From an uncultured Oscillibacter sp. (GTDB lineage Bacteria; Bacillota; Clostridia; Oscillospirales; Oscillospiraceae): a stretch of 32,347 nt of DNA. Below are positions 7,692 to 13,827 of this stretch, in pieces. Under the pieces are notes generated by a model, which made no database searches, was not told the DNA's origin, and saw only the letters and a program-made list of their open reading frames with translations. Within the stretch, counting starts at the first letter, position 1. Each line of letters opens with the position of its first letter. The stretch is from positions 1 to 32,347 of the forward strand of contig CAJOHW010000016.1 in the NCBI GenBank assembly GCA_905234565.1. Reading direction: 5' to 3'. The position numbers and the translations under genes are program-made.

Positions 7692-9989
<2,298 letters not shown>

Positions 9990-9990
<1 letters not shown>

Positions 9991-11888
9991 CAGGCGCCGC
10001 CTCCCTTGCGGCGGTCGCCTCCTTTACGGCGGTCCTCTCCGGAGCGGCGCTCAACGCCGCCCGGCGGCGGGGCGTTGGACACCCGCCGGTCCCCTTTGGC
10101 CTCCCGGCGGTCTCCGCCGCTGCGGCGCTCCGGTCCGCCCTCCGCCAGACGCTCCAAATACTCCTGGGCGCAGCGTTTCGCCGTCTCCAAGAGCTTGTCC
10201 CGGTCCTGGTCCGTCAGCTTGCCGTTGCGGTCGATGCGGCGGCACACGTCCCCGTTCTCCCGCTCCACCGTGTCCAAAAACGCCTTGCGGTAGTCCCCCA
10301 GGGCCTCCGGCGGGATCCGCTCCATGGTGTGGGCCAGGGCCGCCACCAGAAGGGCCACCTGCCGGTGGCGGGAGAGGGGGGCGTACTGGTTCTGGCGCAG
10401 AAGCATCATGAGCCCCTGGCCGTAGGCCAGCTGACGCTTGGTGGCCTCGTCCAAGTCGCTTGCGAACTGGGTAAAGACCTCCATCTCCCGGTACTGGGCC
10501 AGATCCAGCCGCAGAGAGCCGGAGGACTGCTTCATGGCTTTCGTCTGGGCGTCGCCGCCGACACGGGAGACAGACAGGCCCACGTTCACCGCCGGACGCT
10601 GTCCGGAGAAGAACAGGCTGCTCTCCAAATAGATCTGCCCGTCGGTAATGGAGATGACGTTGGTGGGGATATAGGCGGACACGTCCCCGGACTGGGTCTC
10701 GATGATGGGCAGGGCGGTCATGCTGCCGCCGCCCAGCTCGTCACACAGGTGGGCGGACCGCTCCAGGAGCCGGGAGTGGAGATAGAACACGTCCCCGGGG
10801 AAGGCCTCCCGTCCGGGGGACCGCTCCAAAAGCAGGCTCAGGGCACGGTAGGCAATGGCGTGCTTGCTCAGATCGTCATAGACGATGAGCACGTCACGGC
10901 CCATGTACATGAAGTGCTCTCCCAGGGCGCACCCGGCGTAGGGGGCGATGTACTGCTCTGACGCCGGGGCGCTGGCGGGGGCGTTGATGATGATGGTGTA
11001 GTCCATGGCCCCCTGGCGCTCCAAACTGGCGGCCAGCTGGGCCACGGAACTGGATTTCTGCCCGATGGCCACATAGATGCAGATGACCTTCTGGTCCTTC
11101 TGGTTCAGGATGGTGTCCAGGGCAATGGCGGTTTTGCCGGTCTGGCGGTCGCCGATGATCAGCTCCCGCTGGCCCCGGCCAATGGGGAACATGGAGTCGA
11201 TGCACAAAATTCCCGTCTCCATGGGCTTGTCCACGGGCTGGCGCTCCAAAATCCCCGGGGCGGGGATCTCAATGGGGCGGTAGCCGTCGTGGGCGATGGG
11301 GCCCTTGCCGTCGATGGGTTCCCCCAGGGCGTTGACCACCCGGCCTAAGAACTGGATGCCCACAGGCATTCCGGCGGTTTTCCCCGTGCAGCGGACCACG
11401 CTGCCGGCGGTGATGGTGCCGTCGTCGTTAAAGAGGACGCAGCCCAAATCGTCCTCCCGCAGATCCTGGACCATGCCCCGGATGCCGCCGTCAAATTCCA
11501 GAACCTCCCCGTACTCCGCGTCCGGCAGGCCCTTGATCCGGGCGATGCCGTCGCCTACGGTCAGGACTTCGCCCCGGACCTCCCGGACCACTCCGGGGGT
11601 GAACTTCTCCATGGTCTCCCGCAGCAGGGGCAGGACATTCTGGGGGCCCGGGGCGATCTCCGCCATGCGCTCGTGGAACTGGCGCATCCGGCCCTCCAAA
11701 CTCCAGTCGTACACGTCCGTGTCCACATGGAGCCGGAAGCCCCCCTCTAAATCCGGGGCCTCCTCCCACTCTAAGGGGACATCAAAGCCGTAGGTCCGGC
11801 GGATAAACGCCCCTACCCGGCGGCACTGTTCCTCCGTGGGCTTCCCGGGGCTTTGCAGCACCGCCCGGTGCTGTTGTGTCGTATTCAC
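9990..11888 (-). CDS. atpA: ATP synthase F1 subunit alpha with fused N-terminal delta-like domain and Arg-rich tail
   Basis: A 632-residue protein, about 130 longer than a usual alpha subunit. Residues 1-78 do not match alpha. They match the C-terminal domain of the delta subunit, with PTEEQ near 17-21, then [21 protein letters not shown] (46-66) where delta proteins have DPSLIGG...(I/Y)DGS. Alpha proper starts near 83 ([13 protein letters not shown]) and continues through [16 protein letters not shown], Walker A GDRQTGKT (247-254), [13 protein letters not shown] (336-348) and the SRVGGDAQ arginine finger (about Arg442). Residues ~585-632 form a tail with repeated ERRSG-x-DRR units. The start is GTG 11888, with GGAGG 6 bases upstream, in a GTGA overlap with atpF. 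No separate atpH exists between atpF and atpA, its normal place. If all copies are translated whole, each F1 would carry three delta-like domains. The delta N-terminal domain was not found in this window. Confidence 0.9.
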
Positions 11889-12370
11889 GTCTTGCCTCCG
11901 TCCCGTTCCGCTTCCGTCAGGAACCGGTCCAGCGCGTCCCCGCCGGAGCCGATCACCAGCTTCTCCACCATGCCTACCGCCAGGGCCCGGATCTCCTCAT
12001 GGGCGTCGTCCAGAATCTTCTGGGTCCGCAGTTCCGCGGTTTTCCGGGCGGTGTTGATGATCTTCCGGGCCTCTTTCCGGGCCTCTTCCAGCTGCTGGCG
12101 CTTCTCCGCCTCCAACTCCTCGCTGGCTTGTTCCTTCATCTGCGTGATCTCCCGCCGGGCGTCCCGGATCATCTCCTCATACTGCCGGCGCAGGGATTCC
12201 GCCTGGGATTCATTCCGGGCGGCCTCGGCCTCCCGCTCGTCATACTGCGTCTTCCGCCAGGCCATGAAGTTCTTCACCGGCTTGTACAGCAGGAAGTACA
12301 GTCCACAGGCTAAAATGGCGAAATTCAGCAGGTGCAGCAGGATTTGCTGCCAGTCAATGTTCAGCGGCAT
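11885..12370 (-). CDS. atpF: ATP synthase Fo subunit b
   Basis: A 161-residue peripheral stalk subunit. One N-terminal membrane segment (about 8-28, [19 protein letters not shown], followed by KPVKNFM) is followed by a long charged, Ala/Glu/Arg-rich helix to about 140 and a short tail ending [16 protein letters not shown]. It looks like an ordinary b subunit and is not fused to delta, unlike the mycobacterial b-delta protein. A GTG three codons upstream (12379) is open, but the AGGCAGGTG spacing favours the ATG at 12370. The stop overlaps the GTG of atpA by 4 bases. Only one b gene is present, so a b homodimer is expected. Confidence 0.94.
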
Positions 12371-12385
12371 TCCTTGCACCTGCCT

Positions 12386-12748
12386 TTACAGGACGAAGAT
12401 GACCAGAATGACCACCAGCAGGGCGTAGATAATGGCCGTCTCAATAAAGACCAGGCCCAGCATTAAGGTCGTGCGGATTTTATCGTTGGCCTCCGGCTGC
12501 CGGGCGATGCCCTCCGCCGCCTTGCCGGTGGCAAGGCCCATGGCAAGAGCGCCGCCTGCGGCGGCAATGCCGATGGCGATGCCGCTGGCAATGGCCTTGC
12601 CGGACACCGTCTGCCCCTGGGCCGTATCCTGGGCGGCGATCACCATGGGGGCGTCCTCCTCCGACGTATCCCCGGCCCACGCGCTTACGCTCAGTCCCAG
12701 GGCCAGCACCAGCAATACCAGAAGCGCGAATACCTTTTTGCCTCTCAT
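12386..12748 (-). CDS. atpE: ATP synthase Fo subunit c with N-terminal signal-like extension
   Basis: A 120-residue protein, about 40 longer than a typical c subunit. Residues 1-25 look like a signal peptide (basic MRGKK, hydrophobic LLVLLVLALGLSV, then SAWAG), followed by an acidic linker (26-50). The canonical hairpin follows: helix 1 (about 52-80) with a Gly/Ala-rich face, polar loop ARQPEAND (82-89), and helix 2 (about 91-119) with ion-binding Glu103 in FIETAIIYALL. Relative to the Na+ c-ring of Ilyobacter, as remembered, the Gln of helix 1 is replaced by Met, while Thr and Tyr follow the Glu; this favours H+ coupling but is not decisive. ATG 12748 has GGAGGAAA upstream. The leader may set topology and be cleaved. 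Confidence 0.93.
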   Translation of the reverse strand: MRGKKVFALLVLLVLALGLSVSAWAGDTSEEDAPMVIAAQDTAQGQTVSGKAIASGIAIGIAAAGGALAMGLATGKAAEGIARQPEANDKIRTTLMLGLVFIETAIIYALLVVILVIFVL

Positions 12749-12801: not shown

Positions 12802-13827
12802 TTACGCCTCCGAAACTTCCTCATAATAGATGCCCACCAGCATGGTCAGAACATAGGTCTGCACCACCGCGTGGAGCAGGGTAAAAATGACGCCCACAAT
12901 CACCGGCACCCCGTAGCGGAGGGCGGCGTAGTGATAGACCAGGTCCGTCACCAGCAGGCCGCTCAAAAGAGCGCCAAAGAGCCGGAAGCTCATGGAAATG
13001 GGCAGGGAAAACTCCTTCAAGGCCGCCTTGGCCCCCCGGAGCCCCGCGTGGCGTACGCCTCCAAAGACGATGACCAGATAGCTCAGGCAGCCCATGCAGA
13101 TGGCGGCGTTTACGTCGCTCAAGGGCGCGGGCAGGGTCACGGACCGTCCGGTGGTGGTGACGGCCTGAAAGCCCAGAAGTTCAAAGAGAGTGCTGGCAAA
13201 GATGTACACCCCCGCCGCAAAGACGTAGGCCCCCACAAAGGTCCGCATCCCCGGGTCCGGCACCTTGGCCTGGCCGTCCAGGAGGCCCACAATGGTCTCC
13301 AACACCAGCTGGAACCGTCCCGGCACCACCTTCATCCGGGGGATCACGAAGATCCGAATCAGCAGCGCCGCCGCCAGGAGGATTCCCGTCACCGTCACCG
13401 CTGCCAGGAGGCCGGGATTCACTTCCTTGCCTCCGAAAAAGCGGATCCGGTTCACGTCATGGAGTACGGCGTCCCGCATAGCGGTCTGCACGTCCTCCTC
13501 CCCGTGGGCCCCGGGGACCATGCCGGAGAGCAGAAACAGTCCCACAATGATACAGCCCCACACGGCGCACTCCTTCTTGTGGGCCCCGATGAAGCCCGCA
13601 ATGCCCCGGAGGATCCGGAAAAGCCCCCTTACGATGGCAGGGAACAGCCCGCCCAAGGCCCGGAGAACGCCTCCAATCCGGTCCGCTCCGCCGATCATCT
13701 GCTCCAGCACCAGTTGGAACCGCCCCGGCACCACTGTAAAGCGCGGAATCACCAGCACACGGATCCAGGCGGAAGCGGCCAGCAAAACCGCCGTCACCGT
13801 TACGGCAATCCGCAGGGAACCGCTCAC
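12802..13827 (-). CDS. atpB: ATP synthase Fo subunit a with duplicated N-terminal segment
   Basis: A 341-residue protein, about 100 longer than most a subunits. The normal a fold runs from about 108 to 341, with the first membrane helix and VIPRMKVVPGRFQLVLE (about 161-177), the stator arginine Arg282 in SMSFRLFGALLSG (usual RLFGN has Asn, here Ala) and the final helix with VVQTYVLTML. In front of it, residues 5-45 repeat residues 140-180: by hand 27 of 41 positions are identical, including VVPGRFQLVLE. A Gly/Arg-rich amphipathic stretch (50-85) and an extra hydrophobic helix (86-106) link the two. Two added membrane segments would keep the topology of the main fold. The start is GTG 13827, preceded by AAGGAGG at 7 bases and overlapping the stop of a small upstream open frame. 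Confidence 0.93.
   Translation of the reverse strand: MSGSLRIAVTVTAVLLAASAWIRVLVIPRFTVVPGRFQLVLEQMIGGADRIGGVLRALGGLFPAIVRGLFRILRGIAGFIGAHKKECAVWGCIIVGLFLLSGMVPGAHGEEDVQTAMRDAVLHDVNRIRFFGGKEVNPGLLAAVTVTGILLAAALLIRIFVIPRMKVVPGRFQLVLETIVGLLDGQAKVPDPGMRTFVGAYVFAAGVYIFASTLFELLGFQAVTTTGRSVTLPAPLSDVNAAICMGCLSYLVIVFGGVRHAGLRGAKAALKEFSLPISMSFRLFGALLSGLLVTDLVYHYAALRYGVPVIVGVIFTLLHAVVQTYVLTMLVGIYYEEVSEA
13288..13410 (-). repeat. Internal duplication in atpB, downstream copy (native position)
   Basis: Codons 140-180. The encoded peptide matches codons 5-45 at 27 of 41 positions, and similarity is also visible at DNA level (for example GTGGTGCCGGGACGGTTCCA against GTGGTGCCGGGGCGGTTCCA). Confidence 0.85.
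13693..13815 (-). repeat. Internal duplication in atpB, upstream (extra) copy
   Basis: Codons 5-45, the extra copy of the first membrane segment plus PGRFQLVLE motif. It lies before the position where a subunits normally begin, so this copy is taken to be the addition. Confidence 0.8.

What the first reader, a model, noticed from the sequence alone, without database searches (positions are those of the whole stretch)
11655..11888. Delta-subunit C-terminal domain fused to the N-terminus of ATP synthase alpha, with no separate atpH
The first ~78 codons of atpA encode a sequence that fits the delta C-terminal domain (PTEEQ, then DLEGGF...VYDWSLEG, matching delta DPSLIGG...YDGS). A full alpha follows, with Walker A at 247-254. 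atpF and atpA overlap by 4 bases (GTGA), so there is no room for atpH in its normal place. In known F1, one delta sits on top and joins b to the alpha N-terminus. A fusion to alpha would supply three copies of the b-binding domain per enzyme and no visible delta N-terminal domain. The known fusion I can name is mycobacterial b-delta; I know of no described delta-alpha fusion.
Basis: partly seen in the sequence, partly recalled or inferred. Interest (0 to 1): 0.85.

Follow-up and report, generated by a model that had tools for sequence, protein, structure and literature searches.

The report
Stator domain fused onto ATP synthase alpha
In this bacterium the small domain that normally anchors the single outer stalk of ATP synthase is joined to the alpha subunit, and no separate anchor gene was found; the same layout, built on purpose by others, gave ATP synthases with up to three stalks that work at low membrane energy.

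Summary
Residues 5-75 of the 632-aa alpha match the C-terminal domain (CTD) of delta (Pfam OSCP, 27.5 bits over a 22.3 cut-off); a complete alpha follows. No other delta was found in the genome (95.8% complete). The layout recurs in 80 of 80 named loci fetched with this protein, and a fusion to alpha is in at least 54 of 109 family genomes with an F-type alpha, the window's own included, so it is no assembly error. It is not undescribed: Ueno et al. 2025 (PMC12229609) built this fusion in Bacillus PS3, got up to three stalks and a-subunits and H+/ATP 5.8, and mention natural cases in Acidaminococcus. New here: breadth (15 families of the class in 343 genomes), a graded series (separate delta, whole delta-alpha, CTD-alpha, CTD-CTD-alpha), and relatives with b'-CTD-alpha in one frame, which would tie a membrane stalk to each alpha. 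An internal start giving bare alpha is not conserved beyond coding constraint, though the window has a candidate. Most likely each enzyme has three docking sites and often more than one stalk; stalk number is inferred, not shown.

The parts
11664..11876 (-). delta/OSCP C-terminal domain, residues 5-75 of the fusion; predicted elements E9-13, H19-33, E39-43, E52-55, E58-61, H64-77
   Evidence: Pfam PF00213 27.5 bits on the isolated segment; Foldseek; secondary structure
11640..11663 (-). linker, residues 76-83, leading into the alpha N-terminal helix (predicted H85-95)
   Evidence: domain bounds; model
10158..11639 (-). F1 alpha subunit, residues 84-577, Walker A at residues 246-253
   Evidence: TIGR00962 712 bits, model 6-501 of 503; alignment A1
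9993..10157 (-). C-terminal low-complexity tail, residues 578-632
   Evidence: outside the TIGR00962 match; printed
11885..12379 (-). atpF, subunit b, 164 aa, ends in GTGA overlap with atpA
   Evidence: PF00430 52.5 bits
12386..12748 (-). atpE, subunit c with a signal-like N-terminal extension
   Evidence: PF00137 55.3 bits on residues 53-115
12802..13827 (-). atpB, subunit a, 341 aa as listed, N-terminal stretch partly repeated
   Evidence: PF00119 60.7 bits on residues 150-335; two matches a1-53 and a125-345 of the open frame
9106..9990 (-). atpG, subunit gamma
   Evidence: PF00231 264.6 bits
7691..9109 (-). atpD, subunit beta
   Evidence: TIGR01039 771.8 bits
7281..7691 (-). atpC, subunit epsilon, with its C-terminal helix domain
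   Evidence: PF02823 and PF00401

Best explanation
atpA of this F-type ATP synthase encodes a natural delta(CTD)-alpha fusion that replaces delta. Shown from sequence: the CTD is on alpha, the delta N-terminal domain (NTD) is absent, and no separate delta or second F-type alpha was found in the genome. Inferred: in an ordinary enzyme the single NTD sits on the threefold axis of the alpha3beta3 crown and limits the enzyme to one b2 stalk. Here covalent attachment does the NTD's holding job, so the crown carries three equivalent b-docking sites. By analogy with the engineered PS3 enzyme, more than one b2 stalk, each with its own a-subunit, can bind, raising ions moved per ATP and letting the enzyme make ATP at a low ion-motive force, which would suit an anaerobe. 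Fusion identity: about 0.97. More than one stalk per enzyme on average: about 0.5.
For: OSCP CTD match and complete alpha in one frame; one OSCP match and one F-type alpha at E<=1e-100 in the genome. A profile of the junction finds PDB 9jc1 (engineered delta-alpha fusion, one entry, 3 chains) as best sequence match, E 2.5e-11, and the full-length model finds 9jc1 chain I first, E 4.5e-52, 47% identity over 572 columns. Ueno et al.: up to three stalks and a-subunits; a and b raised 2.2- and 1.8-fold; H+/ATP 5.8 against 3.0; equilibrium pmf 68 against 133 mV at Q = 2.5. Residues typical of the delta CTD (G50, F51, L53, Y60, D61, G66) are kept in at least 90% of 47 fused homologues. Relatives grade from separate delta to whole delta-alpha to CTD-alpha; 13 loci have b'-CTD-alpha in one frame. 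Good Shine-Dalgarno plus start in the linker region (energy <= -8): 26 of 109 CTD-alpha frames against 28.8 in synonymous shuffles; 0 of 10 b'-CTD-alpha frames.
Against: Stalk number was neither measured nor modelled. The full-length model is weak (mean pLDDT 66.8), and RMSDs of its alpha matches are 14.6-22.8. Only one atpB and one atpF lie in the operon. In the engineered study both the fusion and its wild-type control lacked the epsilon C-terminal domain, which the window's epsilon keeps, and particles with three stalks were very rare in cryo-EM. The window has a good Shine-Dalgarno before an in-frame ATG at residue 68 (-9.8, against -9.5 for the GTG start). Linker regions hold more start-plus-Shine-Dalgarno sites than other stretches of the same ORFs (26 against 15.5 expected at -8), and in whole delta-alpha fusions 5 of 9 pass -6 against 2.4 in synonymous shuffles (3 of 100 reach 5), so some bare alpha cannot be excluded.
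Confidence: 0.55

Rival explanations
1. Single-stalk enzyme. Fusion merely tethers the stator: one of the three CTDs binds the only b2, the other two are idle, and the NTD was lost because tethering made it redundant.
For: One atpB and one atpF in the usual operon order. Among three whole delta-alpha fusions and three separate-delta sisters, the NTD is about as conserved within either group (fusions N 45-49%, C 51-70%; separate N 45-71%, C 49-66%), so early fusion shows no clear release of the NTD.
Against: The engineered equivalent takes up extra stalks; the b'-CTD-alpha relatives leave no idle sites unless the protein is cut. Between fused and separate the NTD differs more than the CTD (N 28-41%, C 37-50%).
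Confidence: 0.3
2. Mixed alpha pool. Internal initiation or proteolysis makes bare alpha, so one fused and two bare alphas give the classical one-stalk stoichiometry.
For: In the window an in-frame ATG at residue 68 follows GGAGG. 56 of 109 distinct CTD-alpha frames have a start with Shine-Dalgarno energy <= -6 in the linker region, more than the 42.0 expected from other stretches of the ORFs; whole delta-alpha fusions 5 of 9 against 2.4 in synonymous shuffles.
Against: For CTD-alpha, synonymous shuffles give 50.1 +/- 4.1 at -6 (12 of 100 reach 56), 28.8 at -8 (26 observed) and 25.0 at -9 (23 observed): the excess is explained by the encoded residues. Of 92 fused frames with the G-R motif, 32 have a start codon at the residue-68 position and 3 of those pass -8. 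b'-CTD-alpha: 2 of 10 pass -6, 0 of 10 pass -8.
Confidence: 0.1
3. A complete delta is encoded in the missing 4% of the genome, and the N-terminal domain on alpha is an extra.
For: The assembly is 95.8% complete in 74 contigs.
Against: Separate delta normally sits between b and alpha; here b and alpha overlap by 4 bases. Six sampled genomes with a full delta and a fused alpha (G008, G043, G100, G148, G176, G178) have the full delta beside a second, unfused alpha.
Confidence: 0.03
4. Chance resemblance or a misread start: the N-terminal 78 residues are not a delta domain.
For: The whole-protein Pfam score is only 0.2 bits above cut-off.
Against: Isolated segment, profile, shuffle and fold tests agree; a relative with whole delta in the alpha frame scores 101 bits (G143).
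Confidence: 0.02

Closest known systems
Engineered Bacillus PS3 delta(deltaN)-alpha fusion FoF1, PDB 9jc1 (Ueno et al. 2025, PMC12229609; abstract, passages and Discussion seen)
   Same: delta CTD fused to the N-terminus of alpha through a short linker, NTD removed, no separate delta
   Different: Natural; 47% identical in the fold-search alignment; epsilon keeps its C-terminal domain; stalk number and ion ratio unmeasured
Natural fusion in Acidaminococcus fermentans and UniProt G4Q3K6, A0A1I2C5T3 (named in the same Discussion; Supplementary Fig. 9 not seen)
   Same: By the authors' description: delta fused to alpha, NTD missing, predicted multi-stalk
   Different: Sequences not compared here; the window's clade includes forms that keep the whole delta
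Mycobacterial b-delta fusion (e.g. PDB 7jg5 chain d)
   Same: A delta domain covalently joined to another stator subunit; homologous CTD (E 5e-6)
   Different: Joined to b; here joined to alpha
Chloroflexus aurantiacus ATP synthase (PDB 9itj and related)
   Same: Two delta chains per entry (6 entries, 12 chains). That it has two stalks and two a-subunits is recalled; one search found no paper on it
   Different: delta is a separate chain of 157 residues
N-ATPase (alternate F1F0; TIGR03321, TIGR03324)
   Same: Its b model ends in a stretch matched by the window's first 78 residues (TIGR03321 175-244 of 246, E 4.2e-5); absence of delta is recalled
   Different: Curated scores not reached; the delta-like part is on b
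[quoted passage not shown] PMC5709465, passages)
   Same: Gene order without a delta gene, as in this operon
   Different: The passages seen do not say that delta is fused to alpha; their supplement was not seen

Membership tests
F1 alpha subunit (TIGR00962) | Score over the curated cut-off of 484.45 bits with full-length coverage | tested here: met
   712.3 bits, model 6-501 of 503
delta/OSCP family (PF00213) | C-terminal domain | tested here: met
   27.5 bits over cut-off 22.3, profile 101-172; fold
delta/OSCP family (PF00213) | N-terminal domain that docks on the alpha crown | tested here: not met
   Match begins at profile 101 and four residues precede it; no other OSCP match in the genome
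delta(deltaN)-alpha fusion FoF1 (Ueno et al. type) | delta CTD directly N-terminal to a complete alpha in one frame, NTD absent | tested here: met
delta(deltaN)-alpha fusion FoF1 (Ueno et al. type) | No separate delta and no unfused F-type alpha in the genome | tested here: met
   One OSCP match and one alpha match at E<=1e-100 in a 95.8% complete genome
delta(deltaN)-alpha fusion FoF1 (Ueno et al. type) | More than one peripheral stalk and a-subunit; raised H+/ATP | not testable with these tools
   Needs purified enzyme
N-ATPase | Curated alternate F1F0 scores | tested here: not met
   alpha 612.8 against cut-off 750.5; beta 599.6 against 752
Mycobacterial b-delta | delta domain fused to b | tested here: not met
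   b is a separate 164-aa ORF without OSCP match at E<=1

The most novel reading that the evidence does not exclude
ATP synthases with several peripheral stalks and several a-subunits are a widespread natural design in anaerobic Bacillota. Joining the delta CTD to alpha happened repeatedly and was followed by loss of the NTD that enforces one stalk; in one clade b' was fused on as well (b'-CTD-alpha), which would fix three b' stalks per enzyme covalently. These enzymes would have a doubled or tripled ion/ATP ratio.
Probability: 0.4. Interest if true: 0.92.

Novelty: new member of a known kind. Interest (0 to 1): 0.7.

Why it matters
Most F-type enzymes are taken to have one stalk and one a-subunit, with the ion/ATP ratio set by c-ring size. 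The 2025 engineering study concluded that the delta NTD is what limits stalk number. The genomes surveyed here hold many natural versions of that edit, among them loci of named isolates (Faecalibacterium gallinarum, Flintibacter muris, Acutalibacter sp., Colidextribacter sp., Neglectibacter sp., Anaeromassilibacillus senegalensis). They make the question of whether nature varies the number of a-subunits directly testable, and the graded and triple-fusion relatives offer built-in comparisons. If confirmed, energy budgets of such anaerobes would need revision.

Tried and rejected
Internal translation start giving bare alpha as a conserved mechanism: for CTD-alpha frames not above synonymous shuffles, though above other stretches of the same ORFs; for the 9 whole delta-alpha frames above shuffles at -6 (5 against 2.4; 3 of 100 reach it) but not clearly at -8 (2 against 1.7). 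Not supported as a general mechanism, not excluded for single strains.

Chance match: rejected by shuffles, fold and profile tests.

Single origin: on 57 of the 159 tree rows, AU tests reject one clade for all fused rows (38 against 19, p 4.4e-40), for the window clade plus the b'-CTD-alpha clade (p 6.8e-65), and for the window clade's fused rows alone (p 7.8e-6). These used quick trees and LG+G4, and groups were named after a tree had been seen, so the p-values are rough. Changes of state cannot tell repeated fusion from later splitting.

Faster decay of the NTD after fusion: unclear. Within-group identities do not show it; fused-to-separate identities are lower for NTD (28-41%) than CTD (37-50%). 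NTD profile scores with clean seeds: 19 whole delta-alpha loci 0-34.1 bits, 42 separate deltas 22.5-129.9, but the five separate sisters nearest to the fusions score only 31.2-39.2, so the profile favours another group of deltas.

Profile errors of mine: the delta profile was contaminated with b-subunits and discarded. The one, used, had 4 of 31 seeds that are not deltas. Rebuilt from 30 clean seeds, the classification of all loci stays the same except L073, which falls between whole delta-alpha and CTD-alpha (Pfam sees profile 31-170 in it).

AlphaFold of the full fusion gave a mediocre model, used only for the fold search. A complex with b could not be predicted with the tools.

Rows dropped: of 80 loci L032-L111, 4 had no alpha frame and one (L108) no upstream part. 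The junction profile had 43 hand-picked rows, the structure alignments 60 and 47 of the loci at hand. In the large tree 8 of the 80 named loci and all but 8 near-identical others were used. In one search identical linker regions were counted once (114 CTD-alpha loci gave 109). Match lists were cut by the tool, so fused counts are lower bounds; the cut hid most fused rows, and I drew no count from them.

Full report
WHAT IS IN THE WINDOW. The minus strand carries an F-type ATP synthase operon in the order a, c, b, alpha, gamma, beta, epsilon (13827 down to 7281). No delta gene lies between b and alpha: atpF ends inside the start of atpA (GTGA, 11888-11885). The atpA product is 632 aa. Its first 78 residues on their own hit Pfam OSCP at 27.5 bits (cut-off 22.3), profile positions 101-172 of 172, i.e. 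the C-terminal domain (CTD) only; in the whole protein the score is 22.5. Residues 84-577 are a full alpha (TIGR00962, 712 bits). Walker A lies at residues 246-253.

IS IT MORE THAN CHANCE. A profile of 30 separate deltas scores the segment 22.3 bits; reversed it scores -2.9; the best of 1000 shuffles scores 4.6 (727 returned a score). A 47-sequence profile of fused N-termini finds delta, OSCP and b-delta chains in the PDB: the 20 best-ranked rows are all ATP synthase delta, OSCP or fusion chains. An AlphaFold model of residues 1-114 (mean pLDDT 67.6) gives 21 Foldseek matches at E<=1e-3, all to chains of ATP synthase entries.

IS THERE ANOTHER DELTA. The own genome (1.99 Mb, 95.8% complete) has one OSCP match, this one, and one F-type alpha at E<=1e-100. 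It also has a V/A-type ATPase: a B-subunit match of 756 bits on contig 13 beside an A-like frame of 606 aa (below that family's cut-off of 844.65). The two genomes marked same genus, G082 and G155, have no alpha match at E<=1e-100.

HOW WIDESPREAD. Of 200 genomes of the family (the window's own included), 109 have an F-type alpha at E<=1e-100. I fetched 80 stretches: 64 picked as fused or odd, 12 with a separate delta, 4 further partial contigs; about 35 more places with a separate-looking alpha were not fetched. Of the 80, 76 had a usable alpha frame. With the window this makes at least 54 of 109. All 80 of 80 named loci fetched with the window protein are CTD-alpha; that set is biased, since the window protein was the query and only the best 80 were kept. 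A junction profile over 343 genomes of the class lists 35 genomes with CTD and alpha in one frame without a stop, in 15 families (193 of 343 had any match). Over 398 genomes of the phylum it lists 24, of which 19 lie outside the class, in 9 families (336 of 398 had any match). These are my counts from the printed, cut lists (query start <=12, end >=148, no stop). Twenty-nine further stretches, picked as likely fused or odd, hold 21 CTD-alpha, 3 b'-CTD-alpha, 2 whole delta-alpha, 2 free CTD and 1 separate delta with two CTDs.

A GRADED SERIES. Whole delta fused to alpha can score like separate sisters (Pfam OSCP: G143 101 and G128 100 bits, against 96-105 bits in the separate deltas of G022, G064, G066, G078). 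Other whole fusions score lower, and CTD-alpha has lost the NTD. On an alpha tree of 159 rows the states are clustered (24 changes; shuffled mean 73.1; 0 of 200 as low), and fused against separate needs at least 9 changes, with free-CTD and b-CTD rows not counted. AU tests on 57 of these rows reject one clade for all fused rows. So delta and alpha have been joined, or parted again, several times; the tree cannot say which.

TRIPLE FUSIONS. Thirteen rows of the tree are classed b'-CTD-alpha: frames of 741-815 aa with about 155 to 240 residues before the CTD. By eye these begin with a hydrophobic, b-like helix. Profile support for b in this part: 6 of the first 10 with my b profile (L032-L035, L037, L039) and, of 8 scanned with Pfam, 5 over cut-off (L034, L035, L037, L039, L055), 1 below (L090), 2 none at E<=1e-3 (L032, L062); all 8 show OSCP and alpha domains over cut-off. 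So 7 of 13 have profile support for b. A separate b lies nearby in 12 of 13 (not found in L062). Eight of the ten family genomes concerned have a single F-type alpha. Unless the protein is cut, such an enzyme must hold three b'.

MECHANISM. Shown elsewhere: the PS3 study argues that the delta NTD on the threefold axis limits the enzyme to one stalk; deleting it and fusing the CTD to alpha gave up to three stalks and a-subunits, H+/ATP 5.8 +/- 0.4 against 3.0 +/- 0.2, and about half the equilibrium pmf (PMC12229609; passages, Discussion). Three-stalk particles were rare in cryo-EM, which the authors put down to loss during preparation. Inferred here: the window's enzyme has three docking sites and can bind more than one stalk. 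I tested the obvious escape, bare alpha from an internal start. Over 109 distinct CTD-alpha frames, 56 have a start with Shine-Dalgarno energy <= -6 in the linker region, against 50.1 +/- 4.1 in synonymous shuffles (12 of 100 reach it); at -8 it is 26 against 28.8. Other stretches of the same ORFs would give 42.0 and 15.5, so the region is richer than average, but its encoded residues explain that. Nine whole delta-alpha frames show 5 against 2.4 at -6 (3 of 100), a possible exception. The window itself has a good candidate at residue 68.

WHAT IS KNOWN. Ten searches of the open PMC library brought up one paper that I recognised as treating a delta-alpha fusion, Ueno et al. 2025, which also names natural cases. 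[quoted passage not shown] In the listings and passages seen I met no description of the whole delta-alpha, CTD-CTD-alpha or b'-CTD-alpha forms; the library lacks most subscription papers and preprints.

VERDICT. A genuine, conserved fusion; a new member of a kind described in 2025; its likely consequence, several stalks, is untested in this lineage. The relatives make the idea testable.

Noticed in passing
L071, L075, L076, L078 (gamma-beta frames of 767-770 aa): Gamma and beta lie in one open frame without a stop between them, with a strong Shine-Dalgarno (-10.3 to -11.7) and ATG at the start of beta; these loci also have b-CTD fusions and separate alpha. L047 shows a similar joined frame of 649 aa (TTG, -8.7).
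   Followed up: partly
L281:4902-5684 (-): A separate delta frame with one NTD and two CTDs in tandem, 261 aa, i.e. a delta with two apparent b-docking domains.
   Followed up: no
L048:3923-5965 (+): Alpha preceded by two CTDs in tandem; Pfam OSCP counts two stretches.
   Followed up: partly
L070, L077, L079, L080, L084, L091, L279, L280: Free-standing delta CTD in frames of 73-124 aa upstream of an unfused alpha, with no NTD found.
   Followed up: no
window 12802-13827 (-): The N-terminal stretch of subunit a appears twice (similar VIPR..VVPGRFQLVLE segments); L052 shows the same two-part match.
   Followed up: no
window 12386-12748 (-): Subunit c has a signal-like N-terminal extension of about 45 residues, also seen in L121, L159 and L044.
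   Followed up: no
window 9993-10157 (-): RRSGxDRR-type repeats at the alpha C-terminus, shared with L112 but not with the other 11 relatives printed, one of which (L118) is cut short.
   Followed up: no
G000 contig 13, about 68173-71303: The same genome carries V/A-type ATPase A- and B-like genes besides the fused F-type enzyme.
   Followed up: no
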